This document shows positions 1,110 to 42,913 of a stretch of DNA of 64,000 nucleotides, in pieces; position 1 is the first letter of the stretch, and every line of letters begins with the position of its first letter. The position numbers were made by a program, and so were the translations under genes. This stretch comes from Ignavibacteriales bacterium (GTDB lineage: Bacteria; Bacteroidota; Ignavibacteria; Ignavibacteriales; Ignavibacteriaceae), in contig CP054182.1 in the NCBI GenBank assembly GCA_015709675.1, positions 2,273,448-2,337,447 of the forward strand, in the 5' to 3' direction. Below the pieces are notes generated by a model. It worked only from the letters and a program-made list of their open reading frames with translations. It was not told where the DNA came from and ran no database searches.

Positions 1110-2606
1110 ATGGCCGTCCCAAAAAAGCTTAAAATTCTTTTCGTGACATCGGAATTGTTCCCATTTGTTAAGACTGGCGGCTTGGCAGATGTATCAAATT
1201 CTCTCCCTCAGGTTCTCCATGAACTGGGTCATGAAGTCCGGATTATGGTTCCAAAATATGGTGCTATTGACAGCCGGAAGTTTAAGATTCATGACGTTGT
1301 CCGTCTGAAAGATCTGACAATACCTATTGGTGATAAAGAGGTGACTTTTTCCATAAAATCCTCCTTTTTGCCTTCTCCGAGAGTACGGGTTCAGATTTAC
1401 TTCCTTGAAAATAATGAGTATTTTGGAAACAGAAAGAGCCTTTATACTGATCCGATTACTGGTGATGATTACCCTGATAACGATGAGCGGTTCATCCTTC
1501 TCAACAGGGCAGTTTTTGAGCTTATTCTCAAACTTGGCTGGGTTCCTGATATCATCCATATTAACGACTGGCAGTGCGGGCTTATTCCGGCATATTTTAA
1601 GACTATTTATGCTAATGAACCGCAGTTTCAAACGTTCAATATCCTGTTTACTATCCATAATCTTTCTTATCAGGGTATTTTCCCAAAAAGTACTTTTAAG
1701 AAGACCGGGCTCCCGGACGAACTTAATTCAAATGACGGAGTCTTACAGGATGGTAAATTCAGTTTTATGAAAAGCGGTCTGATGTTTGCCCATTACATCA
1801 ACACGGTATCAGAGAGTTATGCTCAGGAGATATCCTCAGTAAAGGAAATTTCCGGGTCACTCCTTCCGCTCCTTGAAAAACGGAAATCTGATATTTTTGG
1901 TCTCATAAACGGTATTGATTACTCGGTCTGGAATCCTGAAAAAGATCCATTTCTTTCGCACCACTACTCCGCAAAGGAACTGGAAGGGAAGATGGAAAAC
2001 AAGAGGGAACTTGTTGAAAGATTTTCTCTGAAGTTTGATCCCACAGTCCCTGTTATCGGAATAATTTCACGCCTGTATGATTTCAAAGGGATAGATCTTG
2101 TTCTTGAAGCCTTCCCTGAAATCATGAAAAAGAATGTTCAGGTCGTGCTCCTGGGTACTGGTGAAAAGAAATACCAGACCGCCTTTGAAAATCTGAGTGA
2201 TAAATATGCTGATAAATTCGCCTGTTATATCGGTTTCAACGATGAACTGGCCCACCTCATTGAGGCGGGAGCAGATATGTATCTGATGCCGTCGAAATTT
2301 GAACCCTGCGGACTGAATCAGATGTACTCCCTCGTATATGGGACAGTACCGGTTGTAAGAAAGACCGGGGGACTGGCTGATACAGTTGTCCGTTTTGATG
2401 AAACAACCGAAGAGGGTACCGGTTTTGTATTTGAGAATTATAATGCAAAAGAGCTCATGAAAGAACTTGACCGTGCTCTTTCTGTCTATGAAAATAAAAA
2501 GGTCTGGAATAAGATTATTAAAAACGGAATGAAAGTTGACTTTAGCTGGCAGGCCTCAGCTAAGCGTTATGTTGATCTCTATAAAACGATTCTCAGCGGT
2601 AAATGA
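1110..2606 (+). CDS. glgA: Glycogen/starch synthase (ADP-glucose type, GT5)
   Basis: This enzyme transfers glucose from ADP-glucose to the non-reducing end of alpha-1,4-glucan in the cytosol. The length (498 aa) is normal for GT5. The N-terminal Rossmann domain has the KTGGLADV nucleotide-sugar motif at residues ~21-28, then HINDWQ and FTIHNLSYQG. The C-terminal domain has GIISRLYDFKG and the catalytic E-containing stretch EPCGLNQMYS followed by the second glycine loop RKTGGLADTV. It opens an operon: its stop overlaps the start of the GmhB-like gene (ATGA), and a DUF4270-like lipoprotein lies two genes on, a neighbourhood I recall from Bacteroidota. No branching enzyme or GlgC is in the window. 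Confidence 0.95.
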   Translation: MAVPKKLKILFVTSELFPFVKTGGLADVSNSLPQVLHELGHEVRIMVPKYGAIDSRKFKIHDVVRLKDLTIPIGDKEVTFSIKSSFLPSPRVRVQIYFLENNEYFGNRKSLYTDPITGDDYPDNDERFILLNRAVFELILKLGWVPDIIHINDWQCGLIPAYFKTIYANEPQFQTFNILFTIHNLSYQGIFPKSTFKKTGLPDELNSNDGVLQDGKFSFMKSGLMFAHYINTVSESYAQEISSVKEISGSLLPLLEKRKSDIFGLINGIDYSVWNPEKDPFLSHHYSAKELEGKMENKRELVERFSLKFDPTVPVIGIISRLYDFKGIDLVLEAFPEIMKKNVQVVLLGTGEKKYQTAFENLSDKYADKFACYIGFNDELAHLIEAGADMYLMPSKFEPCGLNQMYSLVYGTVPVVRKTGGLADTVVRFDETTEEGTGFVFENYNAKELMKELDRALSVYENKKVWNKIIKNGMKVDFSWQASAKRYVDLYKTILSGK

Positions 2607-3184
2607 ACCGTGCCCTCTTCCTTGACCGCGACGGCACGATAAATATTGACTATGGCTATATTAACGATCCGGGAATGGTAGAACTGGTTCCCGGGTGTGC
2701 AGAGGGGTTAAAATTCCTTCAGGAAAAGTACGGCTTCCTCCTGTTGGTCATATCTAACCAGTCCGGAATCGCCCGCGGCTATCTGACTCCGGAGGATCTG
2801 GAGGCAGTCAATTTCAGGGTGAGAACTCTTCTCGAGGAGCAAGGGGTACGAATTAGTCATTTTTACCATTGTCCGCATCATCCGGAATACGGCGATAAAC
2901 AGGATTGTGGCTGCAGAAAACCGGCTCCGGGCATGATTATCAAAGGCATCAAAGACTACCAGATTAATCCCGCTGCTTCTTATGTCATAGGAGATAAATT
3001 AACCGATGCGGAGGCAGGTTATAATGCCGGTATTACTTCAATTCTTTTTTCACACAGTGATTTTTCTGAGCCAGAATCATTTTCTGGGTTGCAAAACCAT
3101 CACCTTTTCCCCAATTTTGTAGCTTATAATTTTTCGGAGGTTTGTGATTTTATTTCCAAGGACAGTAATGAAAAGGGGTTTTAG
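2603..3184 (+). CDS. gmhB: HAD-IIIA phosphatase, D-glycero-manno-heptose 1,7-bisphosphate 7-phosphatase type
   Basis: A 193-aa cytosolic HAD phosphatase. The nucleophile motif is FLDRDGTIN (Asp8, Asp10), motif II is VISNQSG, and motif III/IV is CGCRKPAPGM plus GDKLTDAEAG. The CPHHPEYG...CGCRKP segment is the zinc-binding loop typical of GmhB and histidinol-phosphate phosphatase relatives. In the ADP-heptose pathway GmhB removes the 7-phosphate before adenylylation for LPS core synthesis. No gmhA or hldE is nearby, so substrate is inferred from family resemblance only; a histidinol-phosphatase role is the alternative. It overlaps glgA by 4 bp and the next gene by 17 bp. Confidence 0.8.
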   Translation: MNRALFLDRDGTINIDYGYINDPGMVELVPGCAEGLKFLQEKYGFLLLVISNQSGIARGYLTPEDLEAVNFRVRTLLEEQGVRISHFYHCPHHPEYGDKQDCGCRKPAPGMIIKGIKDYQINPAASYVIGDKLTDAEAGYNAGITSILFSHSDFSEPESFSGLQNHHLFPNFVAYNFSEVCDFISKDSNEKGF

Positions 3185-4343
3185 GACTCTGCTTTTTCTT
3201 TCCGCATTGCTCATAGTTTCGGGCTGCGGTGATGACCCTGCTTCAGTAGGTTCAGGATTAATCCCCGATAAAATTACTATTAAAAGTTACGACTCCGAGA
3301 CCGATTCTGTCACTAAAAGTTCAGCTAATTTCAGAAGGGTAGTTTCTCTTAACAGCGCATCATACTTCCTCGCGGGAAGGGCAGATGGTATTACCGCAAG
3401 TTCACTGATCCGGTTCGATTTTTCCATCTTCCCCTATAAAGAAGATCTCCGCAAGGACAGTCTCATCATCCGATCAGCAAAGGTTCGTTTAACCCCGTTC
3501 TACTTTTATGGTGATACATCGGTACATGTCCCGCTTGAAGTTTATAAAGTATATAACAACTGGTCATCTGGCAGTCTGAATAATGACAATATACCTGACC
3601 TGATAGCTCCCCGCGTAAATCTCATAGAATCAGGGTCCCAGTTCTCATCCGATTCTGTATATACATTTAATCTTAAGACTCCGCTGGTAAAAGAGTGGCT
3701 GTATTCAGTTTCTGATACAACAGGATTCGTTAATAACGGCATTTTGATCACCGGCGCTCCCGGTGCAGACAGGATTGCCGGATTTCGATCATTTTCCACT
3801 GATGAAATGATTATTCCCTCGATTGAACTTATCCTTGAAAAGTCAGGGGCTTATGTTGATACGGTGATTTACTTCCTGCTGGAAGATATACACCTGATTG
3901 AGGGGGGGGCTCTGACACTGCCAGGAGACCGTCTCCTTGTAAGAAGCGGATTTACCGATTTTTCCAAACTCCATTTTGATCTGAGCAAATTGCCGGCAGC
4001 AGCAATTATTAACAAAGCTGTTCTCACACTTCATGTGGACACGGTTAATACAAAGACCGGCAATAATTTCGAAAATGTACTGTATGCATATTTTATGTCA
4101 GACAGTCTTGCGAACACTTATGAAAATATCACGTCCTCTCAGCTAATCCGGTCAGGGGCGACGTTTACCGGGGAAGTTACTTCAATTATTACCAGAATGC
4201 TGTTTCAGGAAAATAATCAGGGTATTGCATTAACTCCCGGCTCCATTACTGATGGTGTCGAGCGATTTGTACTTTATTCAACAACGCATCCAGACCCGGC
4301 ACTGCGGCCAAGATTACAAATTTATTATTCGGTTGCGGAGTGA
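3168..4343 (+). CDS. DUF4270-like outer-membrane lipoprotein
   Basis: A 391-residue lipoprotein of unknown function. I start it at ATG 3168, which has AAGGAC just upstream and puts a clean lipoprotein signal at the N-terminus (lipobox VSGC, Cys20). An upstream GTG at 3144 in frame would bury the signal. After the signal comes a GSGLIPD-type segment as in DUF4270 proteins, then two copies of a strand-rich module suggesting jelly-roll or beta-sandwich folds; the second begins near residue 225. An 8-G homopolymer lies in the frame at 3902-3909. It follows glgA-gmhB and precedes a beta-barrel protein. The DUF4270 assignment is by recollection of the family pattern. Confidence 0.6.
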   Translation: MKRGFRTLLFLSALLIVSGCGDDPASVGSGLIPDKITIKSYDSETDSVTKSSANFRRVVSLNSASYFLAGRADGITASSLIRFDFSIFPYKEDLRKDSLIIRSAKVRLTPFYFYGDTSVHVPLEVYKVYNNWSSGSLNNDNIPDLIAPRVNLIESGSQFSSDSVYTFNLKTPLVKEWLYSVSDTTGFVNNGILITGAPGADRIAGFRSFSTDEMIIPSIELILEKSGAYVDTVIYFLLEDIHLIEGGALTLPGDRLLVRSGFTDFSKLHFDLSKLPAAAIINKAVLTLHVDTVNTKTGNNFENVLYAYFMSDSLANTYENITSSQLIRSGATFTGEVTSIITRMLFQENNQGIALTPGSITDGVERFVLYSTTHPDPALRPRLQIYYSVAE

Positions 4344-4345
4344 TG

Positions 4346-5590
4346 ATGAAAAATCTTATAAATTATACATTCCTGTCCATTATTCTGACTACCGCATCTG
4401 TTTTTTCACAGAATTATTCATTGTATTCCCGGTTTGGTTTAGGCTCAATAGAAGGCTCTCAAAGTATAAGAAGTGCCGGTTTGGGCGGATTTGGCACATC
4501 TGATCTGGTGCATGATTATGTTGCAACATCTAATCCTGCTTCATGGAGTGCACTCACCTCCACCCGCTTTCAGTTTGGCACGGTTTTGATAGGTAATTCT
4601 TCAGAAGATGCATCCTTAAGCAGCTATGCTGCTCAGGGGTACTTCAGCGGTTTCTCTTTCGCTTTTCCCGTAAGCGGTAAAAACGGAATAGGAGTATCGC
4701 TTGGATTATTGCCATATTCATCAGTGAATTATGATATGAAAGTCAGAGGACAAGACAGCCGGATAGGTTCGGATTATATACAGGAAGCAAAAGGAGAAGG
4801 GGGACTGGCAAAACTGTATATTGGAAGCTCATGGAAACCCGCAGGTGATTTCCGCATCGGAGCCGCGCTCAATTATTACTTCGGAAAAATGTCTTATCTC
4901 AATACCGTCAGCTTTACTGATGGTGCATCGTTAAAGACTGATTTTTCTAAATCATACAGAATGAAGGGAGTCGGGTTTGATGCGGGGGTTATCTCTCCGG
5001 AACTTTCCGGGATTCTTGGTGTAGAAGAAGTAATACCAGGAATTCGAGTTGGTTTTGCTATGAGTTACTTTAACAAATTTACCAGTGATTCGCTTTTTGC
5101 GGGGGGCAACAATATCGTGATTGATACACTGAGCTACGGAGCCGGCTCCGCTCAGATTCCGCTCAAGCTGTCATTTGGTGCTTCACTGCAGTTGAACAGG
5201 TTTATGCGGGTACACCTTGATATGATTACCCAGTCCTGGTCATCCTATGAGGTAAACGGGATGAAGGATCCGAATATGCAGGATATGATGCGTATCGGAA
5301 GCGGATTTGAATACCGGGTTAAGGACCGGGACAGAAATTTTGACAGCGAGATATACCGCGGAAGTATTTTCTATGAAAAAACACCTCTGGTTATCAACGG
5401 GCAGTCAATTACTGAAATTGGTGCATCGGCCGGCGTTTCATTCAGTCTCTCACCGGAAAGTTATTTCGATCTGAGTCTGCAGTATATTCGCAGAGGCACA
5501 ACAGACAACGGGCTGGTTAAGGAAAATATTTTCAGACTCCACGCGGGTATGAGTCTTGGTGAGATTTGGTTTTTACAACAGGAAAGATGA
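4346..5590 (+). CDS. Predicted outer-membrane beta-barrel protein
   Basis: About 414 residues with a Sec signal peptide (hydrophobic stretch ending near VFSQ). The mature N-terminus YSRFGLGSIEG and the SNPAS segment resemble FadL/PorV-like barrels of Bacteroidota. Alternating aromatic/polar strands separated by Gly-rich turns run throughout. Three start codons overlap the previous stop (GTG 4340, ATG 4343, ATG 4346); the last has GCGGAG at the best spacing. It sits between a lipoprotein and a TPR protein, so an envelope role is likely, but no specific substrate can be named. Confidence 0.6.
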   Translation: MKNLINYTFLSIILTTASVFSQNYSLYSRFGLGSIEGSQSIRSAGLGGFGTSDLVHDYVATSNPASWSALTSTRFQFGTVLIGNSSEDASLSSYAAQGYFSGFSFAFPVSGKNGIGVSLGLLPYSSVNYDMKVRGQDSRIGSDYIQEAKGEGGLAKLYIGSSWKPAGDFRIGAALNYYFGKMSYLNTVSFTDGASLKTDFSKSYRMKGVGFDAGVISPELSGILGVEEVIPGIRVGFAMSYFNKFTSDSLFAGGNNIVIDTLSYGAGSAQIPLKLSFGASLQLNRFMRVHLDMITQSWSSYEVNGMKDPNMQDMMRIGSGFEYRVKDRDRNFDSEIYRGSIFYEKTPLVINGQSITEIGASAGVSFSLSPESYFDLSLQYIRRGTTDNGLVKENIFRLHAGMSLGEIWFLQQER

Positions 5591-5595
5591 CTACT

Positions 5596-6858
5596 ATGAA
5601 AAAAGTATTCGCAATCATTACATTCTTATTTTTAGCATTTGCTGCCCCTGTTCAGGCAGCAGGCATGCTTAATGCGGCAACAGCCAATGACAGTATACAA
5701 CTGATTACTAAATACAGTTTATTCTCAGAATACCACAAAAACCGCGATTATGAAAGTGCTTATCCTTACGGGTGGGAAGTACTGAGAACTGATCCTAAAA
5801 GGTTTGCAAAGTGGATTTACTTTAAAATGGAAGATATCGTCTGGTTCTTCCGTGATTCATCAAACTTTGATGAGGTGAAGAAAAAGGCAGTTGAGGATAC
5901 AACGCTCTATCTATATAATCTTGCACTCGAAAATTATCCGGAGCGCCAGTCGTACTTTCAGCTTAAGAAAGCGTTTATTGCTGAGGTTTGGCTGAACTGG
6001 CCTGCTGTTGAATCTGCAGTTGAGTATGAAAAGGCGATTGCTCTTGATTCAACCGTTGCAATGTATTACTACAACAGACTCGGACAGCTTTATAAGGCAA
6101 TTGCAAAAGAGAATCCAGAAAAGAAAGAACAGGCTATTGATTTCTTTACATTCCTGAGTGAAAAAGAGCCGAATAATCCTCAGTGGAATACTGAACTTGA
6201 AGGATTGGTTGAGAGTATTGATGAACTTATCGAACTTGCGAAAAAGGCATGGGATCAGGATCCTGAAAACCTTACCAAGGGTTGGAAATATACATCACTC
6301 TGCCTTAAGGCCGGAAAACAGGAATTAGCGGTTGCCGCATTAGAAACCATGGTTAAGAAATCACCGGCAACCATCAATTACTGGAATCAGCTTTCATCAC
6401 TCTATTACAAACTCGACCGGCTTGATGCTGCAATTGATGCATATAAAAAACTGATTGAACTTGAACCTACTACCCGTGAGCATTACCTCAATCTTGGCAT
6501 TGCGTTAAAAGACAAAGGTCAGCTTTCCGCTGCAAGAGTACAGTTCCAGAAAGCTTCAGAAATCGGAAATAACTGGGGACTGCCGATTTTCTATGAAGGA
6601 CTCCTTTATGAAACTGCAGCAAGAAACTGCGGATTTGAATTCATGGATAAATGCGTCTATCAGCTTGCAGTTGAAACTTACAGAAGAGCATTTAATATGG
6701 ATCCGACGACTACTCAGGCAAGAGAAAGAATTTCTGCGCTGCAGTCTTCAGTACCCCAGAAGGAAGATTACTTCTTCAGAAAACTCAAATCCGGTCAGAG
6801 AGTTGAAATTACCGGAAGCTGCTACGGCTGGATAGGCAGAAGCATTACTGTACCTTAA
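5596..6858 (+). CDS. Exported TPR-repeat protein
   Basis: About 420 residues. The start is placed at ATG 5596 because GGAAAG lies 9 nt upstream and the protein then begins MKKVFAIITFLFLAF, a signal peptide cleaved near VQAAG; ATG 5587 is the alternative. The mature protein is alpha-helical with several TPR-like units, the clearest around residues 240-350 (pattern W..L...Y...G....A...Y...). TPR arrays mediate protein-protein interaction. The C-terminus ends with a short basic/Gly segment outside the repeats. It is probably periplasmic and co-transcribed with the upstream barrel protein. Specific function unknown. Confidence 0.65.
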   Translation: MKKVFAIITFLFLAFAAPVQAAGMLNAATANDSIQLITKYSLFSEYHKNRDYESAYPYGWEVLRTDPKRFAKWIYFKMEDIVWFFRDSSNFDEVKKKAVEDTTLYLYNLALENYPERQSYFQLKKAFIAEVWLNWPAVESAVEYEKAIALDSTVAMYYYNRLGQLYKAIAKENPEKKEQAIDFFTFLSEKEPNNPQWNTELEGLVESIDELIELAKKAWDQDPENLTKGWKYTSLCLKAGKQELAVAALETMVKKSPATINYWNQLSSLYYKLDRLDAAIDAYKKLIELEPTTREHYLNLGIALKDKGQLSAARVQFQKASEIGNNWGLPIFYEGLLYETAARNCGFEFMDKCVYQLAVETYRRAFNMDPTTTQARERISALQSSVPQKEDYFFRKLKSGQRVEITGSCYGWIGRSITVP

Positions 6859-6873
6859 ACAGGAATATATATT

Positions 6874-8172
6874 ATGACCAGACATCTGAAAAATGATTCT
6901 GAAATATTTGAGGTTCTGAAACTGGAGACGGGTCGTCTTCAGACGAATCTCGAACTGATTGCTTCCGAGAACTTTGTAAGTCCGGCTGTTCTGGAGGCAG
7001 CCGGTTCCATCCTTACGAATAAATATGCTGAGGGTTACCCCGGAAAGCGTTATTACGGAGGATGTGAGTTCGTTGATATTGCGGAGGATATAGCACGCAA
7101 CCGCCTCAAGAGTATCTATAATGCAGAATATGTAAACGTCCAGCCCCACAGCGGTTCACAGGCAAACATGGCTGTGTTTATGACCATTCTTAAGCCGGGG
7201 GATAGTTTCCTTGGCCTGAGTCTTGCACATGGCGGTCATCTCACTCACGGTTCACCGGTTAATTTTTCAGGACAGCTTTACAAACCAACTGGTTATACAC
7301 TTCAAAAGGAAACCGGACTCCTTGATTATCAACAGATTGAACAGCTTGCTCATGAGGGAAAACCGAAACTGATTATTGCCGGAGGAAGTGCTTACTCACG
7401 TGACTGGGATTATAAACGTCTCCGCGAGATTGCTGACTCAGTCGGTGCATTTTTATTGTGCGATATGGCTCACCCTGCAGGTTTAATCGCCAAGGGGTTG
7501 CTTAACACTCCATTACCGCATTGTCATTTTGTAACTTCCACCACGCATAAAACACTACGCGGACCCCGCGGCGGTGTTATTCTGATGGGTAAAGATTTTG
7601 AGAATCCCTTCGGTATTAAAACACCAAAAGGGGACAGACTGAAAATGATGTCCGAACTTCTTGATTCTGCAGTCATGCCGGGTATTCAGGGAGGTCCTCT
7701 CATGCATATTATCATGGCTAAAGCAGTTGCATTTGGTGAAGTGCTGCAGGATTCGTTCGGAGTATATACAAAAAGGGTTGTAGCCAATTCACGAAGACTG
7801 GCTTCGGCATTATCCGGAATGGGATATTCCGTTGTTTCAGGCGGTACTGATAATCACCTGATGCTGATTGATCTCTCAAATAAAAACATTACCGGAAAAC
7901 AGGCCGAAATTGCACTCGGTGAGGCCGGAATTACCGTAAATAAGAATATGGTACCATTTGACTCCCGTTCACCATTTGTAACCAGCGGAATCCGGATCGG
8001 AACACCCGCAGTTACCACACGCGGTATGAACGAGGCTGATATGGATGCAATTGCAGGATTTATTAATGATGCCGTTGAAGGTCATGCTGACAGCACAAAA
8101 CTTTCTGCAATAAAATCCGCGGTAGCAGAATTCTGCAAATCATTTCCGCTATACGCTGACTATTTAGATTAA
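6874..8172 (+). CDS. glyA: Serine hydroxymethyltransferase
   Basis: This PLP enzyme interconverts serine and glycine, moving the hydroxymethyl carbon to tetrahydrofolate in the cytosol. The length (432 aa) is normal. Diagnostic stretches are [12 protein letters not shown], the [16 protein letters not shown] active-site segment, [10 protein letters not shown], the DMAHPAGL cofactor region with Asp, and the PLP-lysine motif [14 protein letters not shown]. The ATG lies 15 bp after the TPR gene with only a weak Shine-Dalgarno. It is followed 1 bp later by tatC. Confidence 0.96.
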
Positions 8173-8173
8173 C

Positions 8174-8932
8174 GTGGCGCCTTTAGATCAGCCGTTTCAG
8201 GATGAGGAGGATAACTCTGCCGATGCAGAGATGACCTTTATGGAGCACCTTGAAGAGCTCCGTAAACGTATTATATATATATTATACGGCACGGTGGCAG
8301 GTGCGGTTGTGGTGATCACCTTCGACAGTTATATCGTTGAAAATTTTCTGCTGTACCCCGCTGCCAGAGCAGGAATTGTGCTGCAGAATCTTGAGCCATT
8401 CGGGCAGGTATTCCTTTATTTCCAGGTATGGTTCATCGGCGGATTGATTGTAAGCATACCTAATGTGTTTTATCAGTTATGGCAGTTTATTTCTCCTGCA
8501 CTGCGAAGCAATGAGAAGAAATATGTAACACTTGTCGTGACGGCTTCAACACTCTGCTTTCTTTCAGGAGTCTTTTTTGCCTACTCCCTGATGCTTCCTC
8601 TTACGCTTGATTTTGCGGTAAACTTTGGTTCTGATTCCATCAGAAATGATTTCGCGATTGACAGTTATATGTCAATTTTTTTCAGCGTACTTTTGGGAGC
8701 AGGGCTCATATTTGAACTGCCGGTTCTCTCTTTTATTCTTTCCCGTATTGGTATTCTGACACCCGAATTCATGAAAAAATTCCGGCGTCACTCTTTGGTT
8801 GCAATTATGATCATTGCAGCATTTCTTTCTCCCGGAACAGATCCGGTCGGACAGATTATGCTGGCGGTACCTTTATTTATTCTTTATGAAATCAGTATTA
8901 TTGTCTCAAAAATGTCAGTGAAAAGATCTTGA
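8174..8932 (+). CDS. tatC: Sec-independent protein translocase TatC
   Basis: TatC is the multi-spanning receptor for twin-arginine signal peptides and works with TatA/B in the inner membrane. The 252-aa protein starts at GTG 8174, has an acidic N-tail and then the conserved MTFMEHLEELRKRI motif with its essential Glu. Six hydrophobic segments follow, with the conserved YQLWQFISPALRSNEKK loop and FELPVLSF in the fifth region. No tatA/B is in the window. Its stop overlaps the TTG of the next gene (TTGA), so the two are translationally coupled. Confidence 0.94.
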   Translation: MAPLDQPFQDEEDNSADAEMTFMEHLEELRKRIIYILYGTVAGAVVVITFDSYIVENFLLYPAARAGIVLQNLEPFGQVFLYFQVWFIGGLIVSIPNVFYQLWQFISPALRSNEKKYVTLVVTASTLCFLSGVFFAYSLMLPLTLDFAVNFGSDSIRNDFAIDSYMSIFFSVLLGAGLIFELPVLSFILSRIGILTPEFMKKFRRHSLVAIMIIAAFLSPGTDPVGQIMLAVPLFILYEISIIVSKMSVKRS

Positions 8933-33848: not shown

Positions 33849-36392
33849 ATGATCTCAAATCTCAAATTACTTGTGATTGCCTCTTTAGTATCCGTGGGGT
33901 TCATTGGTTGCACGGGCACTAAAGAGACAACCGTTAAAATTGAGACCGTAGAAGAAGTCCCTGAAATCCAGAAGGTTGATATCGTCGGAGAACTGCTTGA
34001 GCAGGCCAGGCAATATTACACCATGGCATTACAGAAACAGTCCGTAAACAGCACCCTTGAGGCAATCACACAATATGAAAATGCCCTCAAGACAATTACC
34101 AATCTCAGCTATTATCCTTCAATTGACTCAAATGCAGCATACGAAGAACTCGCTGTGAGCATATGGGATGATTATCAGAAGTTTATTGAGAATTTATCTG
34201 AACTTCCGACAAACGTTTCATTGGGAGCCTATGAGCAGTGGATTGCACGTACCAATCCTGCAGTTGATCAGGCAATTGAAAGTCTGGATCCCGTTCTTAA
34301 CCCGAGCCAGACGGTGGATATACCAGCCGAGATAGCGCTTGAAACCAACCCGATTGTTGATAAATGGATGGAGTTCTACACCGGAAGAGGAAAGAAATTC
34401 CTCACAATGTGGATGGCCCGGTCAGGCAGATACTTCCCTATGATGAAAAGAATTTTTGAAGAAGAGGGAGTTCCGAGCCAGCTTTTATATCTCAGTATGA
34501 TTGAAAGCGGTCTTAATCCTACTGCCCGCTCAAGGGTGGGAGCAGTCGGACTATGGCAGTTTATGAAAGCCACCGGAAGTATTTACGGACTTCAGACGAA
34601 TTTATATATTGATGAACGGCGCGATCCTGAAAAAGCCACACGGGCAGCTGCACGCCATCTGCGTGATCTTTACAGAAATCTCGGAGACTGGTATCTTGCT
34701 CTTGCTTCATACAATGCAGGGGAAGGCAGAATAAACCGCGCAATCAGGAAATCCGGTTCACGGAACTTCTGGACCATTATTAAATATCTTCCCAAAGAAA
34801 CCAGAAACTATGTTCCGCAGTATATAGCAGTATGTCTGATTGCTTATGATATGGAAAAGTATGGTTTTACGGAAATTGAATATCAGACACCCAGCGAGTT
34901 CGACATTGTAAAGGTACATGAAGCCATTGACCTGCAATATCTAGCCAGTGGTGCGGGTACAACCGTTGAAATTCTGTCTGATCTTAATCCTGAACTTACA
35001 CAGTCATGTTCTCCTGCCAATTTCCCCGGCGGTTACTCACTTAAAGTACCAAAGGGATCTTCCAGACTTCTTGCCGCAAATTTGCAGAATGTCCCTGAAG
35101 AAGCCAAGAAGAAGGTGATCGTTCATGTTGTAAAAAAAGGTGAAACGGTTAAATCCATTGCTTCAAATTATGGCATCACGGTGAATGAGCTTACTGATGC
35201 AAATAACATTTCGTCAAAGGCTAAGCTTAAACGCGGAGCCAACCTCAGAATTCCTCTTAAGGTGCGTTACTCTGATGTAACTCTGGCCGCCCAGTCAGAA
35301 GATGAAGTTAGCGCTGAGGATAATGAAAATTCATATATCAGTCCCTATACTCAACTTGCCGGTGATACTTCAACAGAACCGGCTGATACCGAGGAAACCG
35401 ATGAACCGGGATCTGATGTAGCTTCAATTCCTGTCCCTGATGGAAAATCAGAAGTTTTTTATACCGTAAAGACCAATGACAATCTCAGCCGGATCGCCGA
35501 ATTGTTTGATGTCAGGGTCATTGATATCCGCAACTGGAACGATCTTGCCTATAACCGGAAAATTAAGCCTGGTATTAAACTCCGTGTATTTGTTCCCGAG
35601 GAAAAGAAAGATTACTACGCTTCAATTGATACACAGAGTGAAACAGAAAAGCTGAGTAAACCGAAAACCATTTCATCTGTATCTTCATTCTACTATCAGG
35701 TGAAACGGGGTGAAACCCTTTCGAAAATTTCAAGCAAGTTTAATGTTTCGGTAAGCGAACTTAAGCAGTGGAACAAACTTAAATCGAACCGTATCAATCG
35801 CGGTCAGCGGCTTAAAATATATACTTCAAAGCATAGTGATGAAATCCTTGCTGTAAAAGACCAGAGTCGTGAGATAAAAAAGAAGGATGTAAAATACAAG
35901 GTTAAAAGAGGTGATAACCTTGGCAGCATTGCTCTCAAATACGGCGTAACCACAAATGATCTGAGAACATGGAATAATCTTGCCAGCGATGATATTCGCA
36001 TCGGGCAGGTGCTTGCCATAACAACCAACGATAAATCTTCCAGTATGGGAGATGTTGCGGCCAATAAAAATACGACCCTCAATAACTATACAGTAAAAAA
36101 GGGTGATACCATCGGCGAAATTGCGGAAAGATTTGGCGTGAGTATCACATCAATCAAAAAGTGGAACTCGCTTAAATCTAATACCGTAAAGATTGGCCAG
36201 AAACTGAAGATTTATTCTTCTTCCACAGCGAAGAATAACACCTTAAACGGACCTGTGAAGCATGTTGTCCGTTCCGGCGAATCCCTCTACACAATTGCAA
36301 AAAAATATAATGTGACGGTTGATTCAATCCGTCAAAAAAATGATCTGCTCTCGGAAACAATTAAACCGGGACAGACCTTAGTAATAAACTAA
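33849..36392 (+). CDS. mltD: Lipoprotein lytic murein transglycosylase, MltD-like, with six LysM domains
   Basis: An 847-aa envelope enzyme. Lipobox FIGC (Cys21). A helical region (45-195) precedes the SLT catalytic domain (~200-300), with catalytic Glu219 in LSMIESG, then [12 protein letters not shown] and [14 protein letters not shown]. Six LysM repeats begin near residues 422, 533, 614, 680, 743 and 801, with Ser/Thr/Asp-rich linkers. LysM modules bind GlcNAc chains; the SLT domain cleaves MurNAc-GlcNAc with anhydro-ring formation. E. coli MltD has two LysM, so this is a long version. AGAGAGGAG lies before the ATG. Confidence 0.92.
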
Positions 36393-36417
36393 AAATATAG
36401 TTCTTTAAATAGTTGAG

Positions 36418-36502
36418 CCGTTAGGGGTGCCTGCAGGCTATAAAGCAGGCTGAGAAAATACCCTTAGAACCTGAACCGGATAATACCGGCGTAGGGAAAC
36501 GA
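36418..36502 (+). ncRNA. TPP riboswitch (THI element) aptamer
   Basis: All conserved parts are visible. P1 is formed by CGTT (36419-36422) and AACG (36498-36501). P2 pairs GGGGT with ATACCC. P3 is GCCTGC with GCAGGC. The T-loop CTGAGA is at 36450-36455. TTAGAACCTGA leads to the P5 hairpin CCGG-ATAATA-CCGG, and the aptamer closes with CGTAGGGA. It binds thiamine diphosphate. It stands 75 bp upstream of a TonB-dependent receptor, followed by thiamine pyrophosphokinase and a symporter, so it should repress uptake when TPP is high. Confidence 0.96.
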
Positions 36503-36524
36503 CCGGAGAAAGTCATTCTTTTCT

Positions 36525-36553
36525 GCGGCCCTTTCGCATTAACGGCCTTTTTT
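36525..36553 (+). terminator. Putative riboswitch expression platform: short terminator in competition with an antiterminator
   Basis: GGCC at 36527-36530 can pair with GGCC at 36544-36547, directly followed by six T. The overlapping sequence TAACGGC (36540-36546) is also a perfect complement of GCCGTTA at 36418-36424, the 5' strand of P1. Ligand-stabilised P1 would free the terminator arm; without ligand, the long-range 7-bp helix would block it. The 4-bp terminator stem is short, so control at the AGGAG at 36568-36572 remains possible. Confidence 0.5.
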
Positions 36554-36577
36554 GTTCAATACAAATCAGGAGTAATC

Positions 36578-39070
36578 ATGAAAAGTATGATTTTTTTCAT
36601 ACTGCTTTCCATTGCTGTTCATGCGCAGCAAACCAGCCGGATTTCCGGTCATGTCTATGACGGGGAGACCGGCAGTCCTTTATATTCAGCTTCAATATTA
36701 CTTAAAGGAAAAAATACCGGCGGTACCACTGACGCGGCTGGGTTTTTCTCTTTTACGGCGGAAATGAGTGAGGCTGATACGATAGTTATTTCTTTCCTTG
36801 GATACCAGAAAAAATTTATCCCCTTTGCACAATTTAAATCGGGTAATCCGCTTAGCATTAATCTGACCCGCACACTCCTGAGCGCGCAAAGTATTTATGT
36901 AACTGCGGCTTTAGGTGAAAAAGAGCAAAATCCCGCTGTTCTTGAGGAAATTTCAAAACAGACGATTCAGGAAAATTACTCCGTACAAGATGTTCCGGAA
37001 TACCTTTCAACTCTTCCTTCGGTTAGTTTTTACTCAGATAACGGCGGAGCGGTTGGATATAACTATCTTAGCATCAGAGGATTTGACCAGAGGAGAATCG
37101 CTGTTTCAGTGAATGGCATTCCGCAAAATGACCCCGAAGATCATAATGTTTACTGGATTAATTTTTCTGACATCTTATCTGGTACTGATCTTGTCGTTGT
37201 GCAGAGAGGATCAGGAGGCGGCATATCCGGTTATCCTGCTATAGGTGGTGCAGTAAATCTGATTACAGCATCCAATTCAGAAAAACCCTTCACTTATCTA
37301 AGAACTGGATTGGGGAGTTATAATACAAAGAAGATTTCTTTTGAAAGCTCAAGCGGAATTTTTAATAAAAAAAGTTCTCTCTATGTAAAACTTTCGCAGA
37401 TAACCTCATCCGGCTATCGTGATAAGTCATTCGCCAAACTGAATTCCTATTATCTATCCTACCAGCAGTTTGATGATAATCTGGTTTCACAGATAAATAT
37501 TTATGGTGGTATTCTTGAAGACGGACTGGTATATACCGGCCTGCCAAAGTTTACCGTAAAGGATGAAAATCTCCGCCGCAAGAATTATTCCTACTGGGAA
37601 TCTGATAACTCACAGTTTACCTGGATTACCGAGAGGCGTGCAGGTGAGATAGAAAACTTTTCACAGCCCCATTATGAGATTCTTAATGAATACCAGTTTT
37701 CTGACAATCTGAAACTTAATTCTGCGCTTTTTCTGGTAACAGGAAACGGCTTTTATGATTATGATGCATCCTGGGCGCCTCTTTCATACTTCCGTGTATC
37801 AAGTATTTCAGGATTCCCGTCTTCGATTGATCCGGATACCATTTATTCGCCTAATGCCATTATCAGAGCTATGGTCGAGAATGTTCAGTATGGCTGGATT
37901 CCGCGCTTCTCCTACAAGCACGAAGGCGGTGAATTTATTTCAGGTCTGGAACTGAGGAAGCATAGTTCACTGCATTGGGGTTCACTGCGATACGGGGATA
38001 ATCTGCCCGCGGGAATACCTCAGGAGTGGAAATACTATAGTTACCGCGGAGGTAAAGATATCGTGAATTTCTTTGTTTACGAGAATTATAAACTTAACGA
38101 TAAACTTTCTCTACAGGGAGAACTTCAGGCAGCATACCATAAATACAGAATCTATGAGGAGCAGTTTGTTGCCAATAACTTTTCTCTTGATAATCTTTTC
38201 CTGAACGGAAGATTTGGCGTTTACTATAATTTTTCAGAACAAAACGCACTCTATCTCACCGCTGCAAGGGTAAGCAGAGAACCCCGTTTGAAAGAATATT
38301 ATGATGCGGCCGAATCAAGCGGGGGAGCAGTTCCGCAATTTGTACAGAGAACAGACGGAACTTATGACTGGAATGAACCCTTAGTTAAGCCTGAAACATT
38401 GCATGCTCTTGATTTTGGATACCGGTACAGAGGCCAGAATTTTGACGGCGGAATTAATCTATATGCAATGTATTTTACGGACGAGATAGTCAAGAATGGT
38501 GATCTCGACCGTTTTGGGCAGCCGCGAACCGGAAATATGAAAGCCACCGAACATCTTGGTGCCGAGGTTTATGGAATATATAAACCCGTAAAGCAAATTA
38601 ATATTATAGGAAACTTTACTCTAAGCAGTGATAAGATTACAGAGGGATTCCGCTATGCAGACCTTTCATCCGGGGTACAGAAAATTGATCTCGCAGGTAA
38701 CCGGATTGCTGGTTTCCCCGGATATCTTGCCAATGCAATTGTTCAGTACGAGCAGTCCGGAGTTTTTCTTCAGGCATCAGCGAGATTCTCAGGTAAAATC
38801 TATTCCGATAATTATGGCGACAATCTGAAAAATCTGCTTGCTGTTTACCCTGATCTTACTTCTTACAATGACAATGTAAATGATGAATTTTTTACTCTCG
38901 GTTTATTCGCAAGCTGGTCATTCAAAATATTTGAGGATGCCAGAGAATCAAAAGTCTATGTTCAGGCGAATAATGTTTTGAATAATCTCTACTCCGCGTA
39001 TGCTGTCGGGGGAGAATTCTTTCCTGCAGCAGAGAGAAATTTCTTTTTTGGATTTGAAGTCGGTTTCTAA
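36578..39070 (+). CDS. TonB-dependent outer-membrane receptor, probable thiamine uptake
   Basis: An 830-aa receptor. Signal peptide MKSMIFFILLSIAVHAQQ, then a carboxypeptidase-regulatory-like beta-sandwich (~20-105: ISGHVYDGETGSPLYSAS, TDAAGFFSF). The plug domain contains LSIRGFDQRRIAVSVNGIPQ and the VVQRGSGGG and GAVNLITA segments. A 22-strand barrel follows, ending in Phe (FFFGFEVGF) as outer-membrane porins do. Start ATG 36578 has AGGAG 6 nt upstream. TPP-riboswitch control plus downstream TPK predict thiamine (or its phosphates or precursors) as ligand. No SusD partner is present. Confidence 0.9.
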   Translation: MKSMIFFILLSIAVHAQQTSRISGHVYDGETGSPLYSASILLKGKNTGGTTDAAGFFSFTAEMSEADTIVISFLGYQKKFIPFAQFKSGNPLSINLTRTLLSAQSIYVTAALGEKEQNPAVLEEISKQTIQENYSVQDVPEYLSTLPSVSFYSDNGGAVGYNYLSIRGFDQRRIAVSVNGIPQNDPEDHNVYWINFSDILSGTDLVVVQRGSGGGISGYPAIGGAVNLITASNSEKPFTYLRTGLGSYNTKKISFESSSGIFNKKSSLYVKLSQITSSGYRDKSFAKLNSYYLSYQQFDDNLVSQINIYGGILEDGLVYTGLPKFTVKDENLRRKNYSYWESDNSQFTWITERRAGEIENFSQPHYEILNEYQFSDNLKLNSALFLVTGNGFYDYDASWAPLSYFRVSSISGFPSSIDPDTIYSPNAIIRAMVENVQYGWIPRFSYKHEGGEFISGLELRKHSSLHWGSLRYGDNLPAGIPQEWKYYSYRGGKDIVNFFVYENYKLNDKLSLQGELQAAYHKYRIYEEQFVANNFSLDNLFLNGRFGVYYNFSEQNALYLTAARVSREPRLKEYYDAAESSGGAVPQFVQRTDGTYDWNEPLVKPETLHALDFGYRYRGQNFDGGINLYAMYFTDEIVKNGDLDRFGQPRTGNMKATEHLGAEVYGIYKPVKQINIIGNFTLSSDKITEGFRYADLSSGVQKIDLAGNRIAGFPGYLANAIVQYEQSGVFLQASARFSGKIYSDNYGDNLKNLLAVYPDLTSYNDNVNDEFFTLGLFASWSFKIFEDARESKVYVQANNVLNNLYSAYAVGGEFFPAAERNFFFGFEVGF

Positions 39071-39071
39071 A

Positions 39072-39719
39072 GTGAAAAGTAAAGCTATTATAATTGGAAA
39101 TGGAGAACAGCCGCCCTCAGATATTCTAAAGGCGGCGGTGAATTCCGGTGTTTTCGAAATTATCTGTGCTGACGGGGGGTATCATCATGCTGAACGTCTC
39201 GGAATCGTCCCGGATATTATTATCGGTGATATGGATTCGCTGACAGCAGATGAAGTTTCAGTTCTTGAGGGAAAAATTGCAATGAAGAAATATGAGGGAC
39301 AGAATGACACTGATGTTGAGAAAGCAATATCCTATTGCCTTGAGAATGGTATATCCGATATTGCACTGTTTGCTGTAACGGGCAAACTGATTGACCATGA
39401 AATATCAAATATAATGCTTCTGTTCAGGTATGCTCCTCATCTCCGTATCCGGATTTTCAATAGTGATTCTGTACTTGAAGCGGTTACTGGGAAAATCAGC
39501 AGGACGACTGGAGCAGGTGCACGTGTGTCATTTTATGCATTTGGTTCTGAACTTCAGGTTAAAACAAGAGGGCTGAAGTATCAGCTCCCTGATGAGAAGC
39601 TTATTTTCGGTAAAGAAGAGAGTACATCCAATCTTTCTGTTGAGGATACAATCTTTTTTGATGTTTCAGGAGGATATATGCTGCTGATTCTTCCTTTGGA
39701 CAAGAATAACCCGCTTTGA
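39072..39719 (+). CDS. Thiamine pyrophosphokinase
   Basis: Transfers pyrophosphate from ATP to thiamine, giving TPP directly in the cytosol. I start it at GTG 39072, 1 bp after the receptor stop, giving 215 aa beginning MKSKAIIIGNGEQPP; a longer frame from 39000 would overlap the receptor. Catalytic-domain motifs: CADGGYHHAERLGIVPD, IIGDMDSLTADE, and the Asp-Thr-Asp segment GQNDTDVEKAI, then GKLIDHEISN. The C-terminal beta-domain has LKYQLPDEKL and STSNLS for thiamine binding. TPP-riboswitch regulation by the product is consistent. Confidence 0.9.
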   Translation: MKSKAIIIGNGEQPPSDILKAAVNSGVFEIICADGGYHHAERLGIVPDIIIGDMDSLTADEVSVLEGKIAMKKYEGQNDTDVEKAISYCLENGISDIALFAVTGKLIDHEISNIMLLFRYAPHLRIRIFNSDSVLEAVTGKISRTTGAGARVSFYAFGSELQVKTRGLKYQLPDEKLIFGKEESTSNLSVEDTIFFDVSGGYMLLILPLDKNNPL

Positions 39720-41089
39720 TAAGTTTTGCTTTCTGGGATTATGCAGTCCTGCTGCTCTTTTTTGTTTCGCTGCTGATTACAGGATATATTGCGTCCCGCA
39801 GGGGAGGGAGTGATGAGCAAAGCTACTTTCTTGCCGGCAAAAAGACAGGAATCGTTCTTTTTATCGTAACCAATGTTGCCACCTGGTATGGCGGAATACT
39901 AGGAATCGGTGAATTCACCTATCAGTACGGACTTGTTACCTGGTTCACACAAGGATTACCTTATTACCTTTTTGCCATACTCTTTGCGTTCTTTATGGTG
40001 AAAAAGGTTTACCAGGGTGGAACGATTACAATTCCTCAGAAGATTGAATCTGTGTATGGCAGGGGAGCGGGCAAGACTGCATCTTTATTTGTGCTGATAC
40101 TCAGCTCACCTGCTCCTTATCTTCTCATGGTTGCTCAGATTCTTGATTTATTTTTCGGATTGCCGCTCTTTTGGGGACTTGTGATTTCAGCCGTCCTCTC
40201 AATTTTTTATCTGATTAAGGGGGGCCTGCTGTCAGATATTTATGTTGATGCACTTCTTTTTATCGTTATGTTTTCCGGTTTCGGAATTCTTCTCTGGAGT
40301 GTTTATACATCTGCTGGTTCAGAGATACTCTTTAATCAGCTTCCAGCATCACATCTTTCTCTGACAGGAGGATTGTCACCACTATATCTTGGTGTCTGGT
40401 GGATGATTGCTGTCTGGACATTTGTTGATCCCGGGTTTCACCAGAGGGTCAAAGCTGCCCGCTCAGTGAACACAGCGAAATGGGGAATCATTATCTCAGT
40501 TGTGCTCTGGCTGGTCTTTGATTTTCTGACTAATGTTACCGGATTATATACCGCTGCACTGTTGCCAGGAATTAGTGATCCTAAAAACTCCTTTCCACTG
40601 CTTGCTGACCGGTTTCTCACTGTGGGGTTTAAGGGTTTCTTTTTTGCTGCTCTCTTTGCAACAATCATATCCACTTCAAACAGTTTCCTTTTTATAAGCG
40701 GAACGACTATCGGAATTGATTTTATCAAAACCGGACAAAAGAAGAAAGCAGCAATTTATGGAATGATAATCTCCGCTGGTCTGGCTATTGCACTGGCGCT
40801 TCTAATTCCATCGGTTATTGGCATGTGGTATCTTATCGGTTCTGTTTGTGTGCCCGGACTTCTTCTTGCTACTCTTGCTGCATATTTTCCCGGGCTTAAT
40901 ATTGGCAGGGGAGTGATACAGGCAGGGTTCATTGCAGGAAGTCTCAGTTCCGTTTTATGGTATATACTCAGGGAAGCAGGAAAACTCTCCCCGGAATTAG
41001 AGTTAATTGAACCAATGATTGTGGGACTTGCGGTAATTAGTATTTTAGCGGGAGGTGAGAAAATAAATGCGGTCTTCCGGAAAAGATAA
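39716..41089 (+). CDS. Sodium:solute symporter (SSS family), candidate thiamine importer
   Basis: A 457-aa inner-membrane protein with about 12-13 helices, starting at TTG 39716 in a TTGA overlap with the TPK gene. SSS features: SYFLAGKKTG after helix 1, TWYGGILGIGEFTYQYG in the unwound substrate region, and later VDPGFHQRVKAARS and SGTTIGIDFIK. It is the last gene of the TPP-riboswitch operon, and so the probable cytoplasmic-membrane step for thiamine or a precursor. SSS-type thiamine transporters (ThiV) have been proposed in other lineages from THI-element context (recalled, unchecked). Confidence 0.85.
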   Translation: MISFAFWDYAVLLLFFVSLLITGYIASRRGGSDEQSYFLAGKKTGIVLFIVTNVATWYGGILGIGEFTYQYGLVTWFTQGLPYYLFAILFAFFMVKKVYQGGTITIPQKIESVYGRGAGKTASLFVLILSSPAPYLLMVAQILDLFFGLPLFWGLVISAVLSIFYLIKGGLLSDIYVDALLFIVMFSGFGILLWSVYTSAGSEILFNQLPASHLSLTGGLSPLYLGVWWMIAVWTFVDPGFHQRVKAARSVNTAKWGIIISVVLWLVFDFLTNVTGLYTAALLPGISDPKNSFPLLADRFLTVGFKGFFFAALFATIISTSNSFLFISGTTIGIDFIKTGQKKKAAIYGMIISAGLAIALALLIPSVIGMWYLIGSVCVPGLLLATLAAYFPGLNIGRGVIQAGFIAGSLSSVLWYILREAGKLSPELELIEPMIVGLAVISILAGGEKINAVFRKR

Positions 41090-41138: not shown

Positions 41139-41684
41139 TCAGGGAAGGAGAACGCCTACCGCAATTACGGTAGTCCAGATACCAGTTTTGTCACCTTCAG
41201 CTGACTGTGTAATATTGAATGAGCGGACAATTTTGCCCGACATTTTATAAATATTCTCACGCTCACTCCAGTCGGTATCAGGATTAAACTCAACACCAAG
41301 AGTAGTTGCAAGCATGGTTGCAGCCAGATCTTCAGCATAATCACCCGCTACTTTTTCAGATTCTCCAAAGGGATGGTGTTCTGAGAGGTAACCATACTGA
41401 TCAGGATCTGCCGGAAGCGCCACACCAATTGATGATGCTATAAGACGGTTAGGCTCGTTGGTTGAATTTCTTGCCATGACAGCGAATGTAATCTGTCCCG
41501 GCTGAAGAAGCTTTAATCCTTCTTCCTTTGAAATTCTTTTGCATCCGACCGGATAAATGGAGCTAACGGTAACGAGGTTGCATTTTTCCACACCTGCATT
41601 ACGGAGTGCCAGTTCAAAAGAGGTCAGGTACTCTTTGTGGCGGCCTACCCCTTTTGTAAAGAATATTTTTGAAGGTACATACAA
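41139..41684 (-). CDS. pdaD: Pyruvoyl-dependent arginine decarboxylase
   Basis: Decarboxylates arginine to agmatine, the first step of one polyamine route. The 181-aa proenzyme has the family start [20 protein letters not shown], the autocleavage region [11 protein letters not shown] (Ser41-Ser42, the second becoming the pyruvoyl group by analogy with Methanocaldococcus PvlArgDC), and later SSIGVALP and [11 protein letters not shown]. It is 14 bp downstream of tyrS and probably co-transcribed. No agmatinase or agmatine deiminase is in view. Confidence 0.93.
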
Positions 41685-41698
41685 TATATCATCTCCTT

Positions 41699-42913
41699 TT
41701 AGGATTTTATTATTTTGAGGAATTTTCTTTTGCCAACTTTAAGTATATTCTCCTTTTCAAGAAGAACCACCTCAGCCGGATCAGCAATTTTACGGCTGTT
41801 AAAACTAACTCCCCCCTGCTGAATCAGCCGTCTCGCTTCACCCCGTGACGGTGCCAGTTCAAATTTCATAAGAAGATCAACTGCAGAAAGTTCTGTGAGA
41901 TCGGTTACGGCTTCCGGTATTTCATCAGGAATTTCCTTCTTGATGAATATTCTGTCAAACTCTTCCTCAGCTTCGCGTGCGGCTTCTTCAGAATGATATA
42001 ATGCAACAAGTCTTTTTGCGAGATCCCGCTTTATATCACGTGGATTGGTAACTCCGTCAGAAAGTTTTTGCTTTATTTCATTGAGGTATTCATTGCTGGC
42101 TAAAGTGGTCAGAACAAAATAGTCATAAATCATTGAGTCAGCAATCGAGAGAGTTTTGCCAAAAATATCTCTCGGGCTGTCGCTGATGCCGATATAGTTT
42201 CCGTATGATTTGCTCATCTTTTCAACACCATCGGTACCAACAAGAAGCGGCATGGTGAGGATTACCTGCGGCTCAAGTCCAAACTCGCGCTGAATATCCC
42301 TGCCGACAAGAAGATTAAATTTTTGATCCGTCCCGCCAAGTTCAACATCACTCTGAATAGCTACTGAATCCATCGCCTGAGCAAGGGGATACAGGAATTC
42401 ATGCAGGCTGATAGGCTCACCCGAACGGAATCGCTTTGTGAAATCATCACGTTCGATCATTCTGGCAACGGTGTACTTTGAAGAGAGTTTTATGACATCC
42501 TCAAATGTCATTTTTGATAGCCACTCGGAATTGTAAACAATCCGGGTATTTTCCTTATCAAGAATTTTGGATGCCTGTTCAAAATACGATTGTCCGTTTT
42601 CGCGGGTCTCTTCAAGTGAAAGGGCAGGCCGGGTAGCGTTTCTGCCGGAGGGATCACCGATCATCCCGGTAAAGTCCCCGATAATGAGAACTGCCTGGTG
42701 GCCGAGGGACTGAAACTGAGCTAATTTTCTTAGCACAACTGAATGCCCCAGATGCAGATCAGGCCGGCTGGGGTCACAGCCAAGCTTAATAATGAGCTTC
42801 TTTTTTGTTTTTAGGGATTTTTCAATTTTTTGAACCAGTTCTTCTTCTGGGATAATTTCAGAGGCGCCTCTTTTGATGAGGTCCATTTGTTCATTAAGTG
42901 AGGGGAATAACAA
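41699..42913 (-). CDS. tyrS: Tyrosyl-tRNA synthetase
   Basis: Class Ic synthetase charging tRNA-Tyr. The 404-aa protein has the HIGH-type motif [15 protein letters not shown] (in [14 protein letters not shown]), the tyrosine site [13 protein letters not shown], and [11 protein letters not shown]. The C-terminal S4 domain is about 340-404 ([19 protein letters not shown]). It starts at TTG 42913 with AAGG just before; the protein begins [16 protein letters not shown], as usual for this bacterial subtype. Followed by pdaD. Confidence 0.95.

What the first reader, a model, noticed from the sequence alone, without database searches (positions are those of the whole stretch)
36418..41089. TPP-riboswitch operon for thiamine salvage: TonB receptor, pyrophosphokinase, SSS symporter
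One riboswitch precedes an outer-membrane receptor, a TPK and an inner-membrane symporter, joined by 1-bp spacing and a TTGA overlap. Together they give a full path from outside the cell to TPP without any thiamine-synthesis gene. This suggests the organism may depend on external thiamine.
Basis: partly seen in the sequence, partly recalled or inferred. Interest (0 to 1): 0.62.

Follow-up and report, generated by a model that had tools for sequence, protein, structure and literature searches.

The report
Vitamin B1 uptake operon in Ignavibacteria
This bacterium appears unable to make vitamin B1 and instead uses one RNA-controlled set of three genes to pull the vitamin through both membranes and activate it; most of its bacterial class shares the set, and it was already described once in a related phylum.

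Summary
One TPP riboswitch (36413-36514) precedes a TonB-dependent receptor, a thiamine pyrophosphokinase (TPK) and a sodium:solute symporter (SSS), with the stated 1-bp gap and TTGA overlap. It is the only TPP aptamer in the complete 4.21-Mb genome (Ignavibacteriaceae by nearest named relatives). ThiC, ThiE and PnuT are absent; the weak ThiG and ThiD hits are other enzymes. Thiamine auxotrophy is well supported but not proven.

Among 149 genomes of the class, 64 have an SSS relative 2.7-5.5 kb downstream of a TPP riboswitch. Three options nearly exclude one another: SSS (114), ThiC (25), PnuT (12). Within one family PnuT fills the slot that SSS holds elsewhere, so SSS most likely imports thiamine. 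TPK-SSS pairs also occur in other Bacteroidota classes, Acidobacteriota and Armatimonadota. The riboswitch probably works by transcription attenuation (terminators in 58 of 60 leaders). The SSS model most resembles the choline transporter CHT1.

The same locus type was reported for Caldithrix abyssi in 2017 (PMC5317091), so this is a new member of a known kind.

The parts
36413..36514 (+). TPP riboswitch aptamer (RF00059)
   Evidence: cmscan 74.7 bits over a gathering score of 54.3; only one in the genome
36417..36423 (+). P1 5' strand GCCGUUA, able to pair with UAACGGC at 36540-36546
   Evidence: minimum-free-energy fold; inference for the switching role
36503..36528 (+). candidate antiterminator hairpin (CCG.AGAAAG / CUUUUCU.CGG) overlapping the terminator 5' arm
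   Evidence: minimum-free-energy fold; inference
36527..36553 (+). candidate intrinsic terminator GGCCCUU(UCGCAUU)AACGGCC-UUUUUU, one internal mismatch
   Evidence: same position holds stronger terminators in most relatives
36568..36572 (+). Shine-Dalgarno-like AGGAG before the receptor start codon
   Evidence: read from the sequence
36578..39070 (+). TonB-dependent outer-membrane receptor, 830 aa; candidate thiamine receptor
   Evidence: PF07715, PF00593, PF13715; relatives behind TPP riboswitches throughout the class
39072..39719 (+). thiamine pyrophosphokinase (TPK), GTG start, 215 aa
   Evidence: TIGR01378 136.2 bits, PF04263, PF04265
39716..41089 (+). sodium:solute symporter (SSS), TTG start, 457 aa; candidate thiamine importer
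   Evidence: PF00474; AF2 model pLDDT 95, Z 46 to CHT1

Best explanation
This is a thiamine (vitamin B1) uptake and activation operon in a thiamine auxotroph of the Ignavibacteria. When TPP in the cell is low, P1 of the riboswitch is not held closed, an antiterminator forms and the operon is transcribed. The TonB-dependent receptor brings thiamine through the outer membrane, the SSS protein imports it across the inner membrane with sodium, and TPK converts it to TPP, which traps it. When TPP is high it binds the aptamer, P1 closes, the GGCC...GGCC-U6 terminator forms and transcription stops before the receptor gene. Shown here: the parts, their order, their recurrence, the absence of the searched synthesis genes, and terminators in most leaders. 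Inferred: thiamine as cargo of receptor and SSS, sodium coupling, the switching mechanism and the growth requirement.
For: Single riboswitch in the complete genome. No ThiC, ThiE or PnuT; ThiG and ThiD hits are IMPDH, Dus, NanE and a PfkB kinase. Five Transket_pyr matches, so TPP-type enzymes are present. All 149 class genomes have a TPP aptamer match; SSS lies 2743-5472 nt downstream on the same strand in 64. SSS and ThiC coexist in only 2 of 149 genomes, and each of those has two riboswitches, one per gene. Of 12 genomes with neither ThiC nor SSS, 11 have PnuT. In family f18, G103 has riboswitch-receptor-TPK-PnuT and G056 has riboswitch-receptor-TPK-SSS. TPK is directly beside SSS in other Bacteroidota classes even without a riboswitch nearby, and with a riboswitch in Acidobacteriota L193 and Armatimonadota L191 and L195. 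Without ThiE the cell has no known use for HMP, so whole thiamine is the sensible cargo. Terminators in 58 of 60 leaders.
Against: No transport, binding or growth data for this organism. Co-occurrence counts are not phylogenetically independent. In families f3, f7, f15 and f20 the SSS lies away from the riboswitch. ThiN (archaeal-type TMP synthase), Thi4, TenA and ThiL were not searched in the own genome. The window's own terminator is weak, with a mismatch in the stem.
Confidence: 0.86

Rival explanations
1. The SSS is an HMP (pyrimidine precursor) importer like ThiV of SAR11, and the cell completes thiamine from HMP.
For: ThiV/SSSP are PF00474 symporters under TPP riboswitches, with HMP as cargo in SAR11. 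F241-H242 in TM6 resembles the Phe-His described for HMP/thiamin symporters. In G108 the SSS shares an operon with ThiM and ThiE.
Against: The own genome lacks ThiE and a real ThiD, so HMP would be useless; the SSS is paired with TPK, which acts on thiamine, in several phyla.
Confidence: 0.07
2. The organism makes thiamine by an unrecognised or unsearched route, and the operon is only a supplementary salvage system.
For: Only ThiC, ThiE, ThiG and ThiD were searched in the own genome; some prokaryotes use ThiN or Thi4.
Against: No bacterial synthesis gene searched is present and only one TPP riboswitch exists; class members that do have ThiC mostly lack the SSS operon.
Confidence: 0.08
3. The receptor and symporter carry something other than thiamine (for example another cationic metabolite such as choline) and the TPK sits in the operon only to be regulated.
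For: The nearest solved fold is a choline transporter; the receptor's own NCBIfam hits are generic.
Against: TPP riboswitch control, TPK pairing across phyla, and exchange of SSS with PnuT in the same slot. Key choline-cage residues W141 and W254 of CHT1 are not kept.
Confidence: 0.05
4. The riboswitch acts mainly on translation rather than on transcription.
For: AGGAG precedes the receptor start; the generic scan finds no leader terminator in the window and its stem has a mismatch.
Against: A hairpin plus U-run lies at the same place in 58 of 60 related leaders, above shuffled controls.
Confidence: 0.15

Closest known systems
Caldithrix abyssi Cabys_3975-3977 (PMC5317091)
   Same: [quoted passage not shown] the authors infer thiamine auxotrophy
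   Different: Another phylum; one genome only; no expression platform or displacement analysis given there
Bacteroides OMthi-pnuT-tnr3 system (BT2390, BT2396-2397; PMC5613172)
   Same: TPP riboswitch, TonB-type outer-membrane thiamine transporter, inner-membrane transporter and TPK; genetics support thiamine transport
   Different: Inner-membrane step is PnuT, not SSS; Bacteroides thetaiotaomicron also has a full synthesis operon
ThiV/SSSP symporters (SAR11, Methylobacillus, algae; PMC4260697, PMC11452348)
   Same: PF00474 symporter under a TPP riboswitch; Phe-His at the TM6 site
   Different: Cargo in SAR11 is HMP; context there is not receptor plus TPK; no ThiV sequence was available, so kinship was not tested
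Human choline transporter CHT1 (SLC5A7)
   Same: Closest solved fold (Z 46.0, 452 residues, rmsd 2.8) and among the best profile hits; both cargoes are quaternary cations; W57, E66 and Y83 align with CHT1 W62, E73 and Y91
   Different: 18% identity; CHT1 W254 aligns with invariant D238 and W141 with Ser; cargo differs

Membership tests
TPP riboswitch (RF00059) | Covariance-model score above gathering | tested here: met
   74.7 vs 54.3 bits, full length
TPP riboswitch (RF00059) | Expression platform that responds to TPP | tested here: inconclusive
   Terminator in 58 of 60 leaders and an alternative fold in the window; no ligand response measured
Thiamine pyrophosphokinase | TIGR01378 above cut-off; catalytic and B1-binding domains | tested here: met
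   136.2 vs 76.4 bits; PF04263 and PF04265
TonB-dependent receptor | Plug plus beta-barrel domains | tested here: met
   PF07715 and PF00593 above cut-offs
OMthi/OMR1 thiamine receptor | Orthology to BT2390 and thiamine binding | not tested
   BT2390 sequence not at hand; place behind the TPP riboswitch is conserved
Sodium:solute symporter (SSS/SLC5) | PF00474 above cut-off and SSS fold | tested here: met
   54.9 vs 22.8 bits; Z 46 to CHT1, 38 to SiaT
Sodium:solute symporter (SSS/SLC5) | Na2-site Ser/Thr pair on TM8 | tested here: met
   S319 and T320 nearly invariant, aligned with the CHT1 TM8 Ser-Ser by profile; coupling itself not testable here
ThiV/SSSP HMP symporter | Tyr78, Asp139, Phe254 (SiaT numbering) and kinship to ThiV | tested here: inconclusive
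   F241-H242 and an invariant TM2 Tyr pair fit; no conserved Asp seen on TM3; no residue alignment to SiaT and no ThiV sequence at hand
Thiamine auxotroph | No ThiC, ThiE, ThiG, ThiD | tested here: met
   ThiN, Thi4, TenA, ThiL not searched
Thiamine auxotroph | No growth without thiamine | not testable with these tools
   Needs culture

The most novel reading that the evidence does not exclude
The TPK-linked SSS proteins form a dedicated thiamine:sodium symporter family, nearest in fold to choline transporters and distinct from HMP-carrying ThiV. It took PnuT's place as inner-membrane B1 importer across most Ignavibacteria and occurs with TPK in other Bacteroidota classes, Acidobacteriota and Armatimonadota. 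Thiamine, a quaternary cation, would sit where CHT1 holds choline, with invariant D238 in place of a cage Trp.
Probability: 0.5. Interest if true: 0.55.

Novelty: new member of a known kind. Interest (0 to 1): 0.4.

Why it matters
Vitamin B1 exchange shapes communities such as anammox reactors, where bacteria of this group are common and where MAGs CHB1 and CHB2 were already noted to lack B1 synthesis genes (PMC5460018; that they belong to this group is my understanding). A class-wide picture of who must import B1, and through which protein, makes that dependence testable. The TPK-SSS pair is also a concrete candidate for a thiamine-specific sodium symporter, whose cargo has so far been predicted only from context.

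Tried and rejected
De novo synthesis: refuted as far as the searched families go. The weak ThiG hits looked positive until the proteins proved to be IMPDH, Dus and NanE; the ThiD hit is a PfkB kinase. PnuT in the own genome: absent. HMP import: made unlikely by missing ThiE and ThiD. Translational control alone: not favoured, because 58 of 60 leaders have a terminator; the generic terminator scan misses the window's mismatched stem. No ThiV or BT2390 sequence was in reach for direct comparison. The Fisher test of SSS versus ThiC (p 3e-16) is not used as proof because the genomes are related. A tree of 48 SSS proteins did not place the Acidobacteriota and Armatimonadota rows firmly enough to argue transfer.

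Full report
What was checked. Rfam finds RF00059 at 36413-36514 (+), 74.7 bits, full model. The genes are a receptor 36578-39070, a TPK 39072-39719 (GTG) and an SSS 39716-41089 (TTG). Domains: Plug, barrel and CarbopepD_reg_2 for the receptor; TPK_catalytic and TPK_B1_binding, and TIGR01378 at 136.2 bits over a cut-off of 76.4, for the TPK; PF00474 for the SSS. The 1-bp gap and TTGA overlap are as stated. The upstream gene, an MltD-like transglycosylase with LysM repeats, ends at 36392, only 20 bp before the aptamer.

Is the organism a thiamine auxotroph? The window lies in a complete 4.21-Mb single-contig genome, 98.4% complete, with exactly one TPP aptamer. ThiC is absent and ThiE is absent, with working positive controls. 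ThiG gave three weak hits and ThiD one; hmmscan of the proteins shows IMPDH, Dus and NanE for the former and a PfkB sugar kinase for the latter. PnuT is absent. Five Transket_pyr matches show TPP-type enzymes that need the cofactor. Known routes to thiamine need a TMP synthase (general knowledge); ThiE is missing, and the archaeal-type ThiN was not searched. The closest named relative of the SSS is from an Ignavibacteriaceae MAG (74% identity, JADLAF010000058).

The class. In 149 genomes of the same class all have a TPP aptamer match, 131 over the cut-off, mostly a single one. ThiC is in 25, a relative of the window's SSS in 114, strong PnuT in 12. Comparing positions, the SSS lies 2743-5472 nt downstream of the riboswitch on the same strand in 64 genomes, 61 of them within 3.5 kb. 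SSS and ThiC coexist only in G059 and G116, and both of these have two riboswitches, one before thiC and one before the SSS operon. Twelve genomes have neither; eleven of them have PnuT, and the twelfth (G004) has two TMP-TENI genes and two riboswitches in a fragmented assembly. Only G134 has both SSS and a strong PnuT. These counts are not independent events, but the exchange is visible inside single families: f18 (SSS in four, PnuT in two), f8 (one and four), f11 (SSS in two, ThiC in nine).

Anatomy of the operons. Reading 40 fetched regions, with riboswitch positions, shows riboswitch-receptor-TPK-SSS in families f1, f2, f4, f9, f10, f11, f12, f13, f17, f18 and f19. G103 of family f18 has riboswitch-receptor-TPK-PnuT, with PnuT (PF04973, 194.5 bits) in the slot where G056 of the same family has the SSS. 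G108 of f22 has riboswitch-ThiM-ThiE-AIRS(ThiL-like)-receptor-TPK-SSS. In f7, and in part of f12, the riboswitch precedes the receptor and a TPK-SSS pair lies elsewhere; in f3 the riboswitch precedes receptor-TPK and the SSS is elsewhere; in f15 and f20 the SSS stands alone, with no TPK found beside it.

Named genomes. Of the 80 best loci in GTDB contigs, 60 hold a TPP aptamer on the same strand upstream of the SSS; 56 read plainly as receptor-TPK-SSS behind it. Most loci without an aptamer end too soon upstream. Outside the class, TPK sits beside or close to SSS in nearly all other Bacteroidota genomes read, mostly without a TPP riboswitch within the fetched flanks, but with one in f36 (L229, L241) and f58 (L236). 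Acidobacteriota L193 has riboswitch-receptor-TPK-SSS, and Armatimonadota L191 and L195 have riboswitch-(prepilin-like gene)-TPK-SSS. A tree of 48 SSS proteins does not place these rows firmly.

How the switch works. The leader's minimum-free-energy fold pairs the P1 5' strand GCCGUUA with UAACGGC at 36540-36546, which overlaps the 3' arm of a mismatched GGCCCUU/AACGGCC stem followed by U6 (36527-36553). Related leaders have a much stronger version, typically AGCCGUUU...AAACGGCU-U6, whose arms repeat the P1 sequence. A terminator score exceeds the 95th percentile of shuffled leaders in 58 of 60 (mononucleotide shuffles). I infer transcription attenuation: TPP closes P1 and frees the terminator; without TPP an antiterminator forms. 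The window's own terminator is among the weakest in the set. For the Bacteroidetes the mode of TPP riboswitch action was called uncertain in 2017 (PMC5613172).

The symporter. AF2 gives pLDDT 95 and pTM 0.92. By fold and by sequence profile the closest solved relative is the choline transporter type CHT1: Z 46.0 over 452 residues at rmsd 2.8, ahead of SiaT (38.4) and SGLT1 (37.6). Choline and thiamine are both quaternary cations. In CHT1, W62, Y91, W141 and W254 cage choline and E73 contacts one end of the inhibitor HC-3 (PMC11589582). By my reading of the profile alignment W62 aligns with W57, Y91 with Y83, E73 with E66, W254 with D238 and W141 with S131; Y83, E66 and D238 are invariant in 59 sequences and W57 nearly so. 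The TM8 Na2 pair is S319-T320. This suggests a site and a type of cargo; it is not a proof. F241-H242 also fits the Phe-His noted for HMP/thiamin symporters (PMC11452348).

What is known. Genetics in Bacteroides support OMthi and PnuT as thiamine transporters (PMC5613172). SSS genes under TPP riboswitches (SSSP/ThiV) were described in algae and bacteria (PMC4260697), with HMP as cargo in SAR11 (PMC11452348). This very gene set behind a TPP riboswitch was described in Caldithrix abyssi, with thiamine auxotrophy inferred (PMC5317091). Missing thiamine genes were noted in anammox MAGs CHB1 and CHB2 (PMC5460018).

Verdict. Observation confirmed; interpretation supported; a new member of a known kind. 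The open point worth an experiment is whether the TPK-linked SSS is a dedicated thiamine symporter.

Noticed in passing
window 33849-36392: MltD-like lytic transglycosylase with LysM repeats ends 20 bp before the aptamer; a relative is found in 49 of 80 related loci, so the riboswitch operon may be partly read through from it or share conserved gene order.
   Followed up: partly
window 41139-42913: Downstream convergent genes, pyruvoyl-dependent arginine decarboxylase-like and tyrosyl-tRNA synthetase, recur near the operon in 41 and 38 of 80 related loci.
   Followed up: partly
L093 (G108:C18) 1468-8227: Operon ThiM-ThiE-AIRS-receptor-TPK-SSS behind a TPP riboswitch in a genome without a ThiC hit: combines moiety salvage and uptake.
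   Followed up: partly
L191 231-986 and L195 201-1097: Armatimonadota: a DUF1559/prepilin-like gene lies between the TPP riboswitch and TPK-SSS, where Bacteroidota have the TonB receptor.
   Followed up: no
L231, L232, L234 and other loci of L227-L246: TPK-SSS pairs in other Bacteroidota classes without a TPP riboswitch within the fetched flanks; their regulation is unknown.
   Followed up: no
L167 5941-7341: SSS relative (46% identity) on a contig labelled WOR-3, without TPK or riboswitch nearby, branching among Ignavibacteria rows; misbinning or transfer.
   Followed up: no
L103 3912-6050 and L104 1403-3383 (G034, family f15): The receptor behind the riboswitch is only 23% identical to the window's, and the SSS stands next to ribonuclease HII instead of TPK; possibly another cargo.
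   Followed up: no
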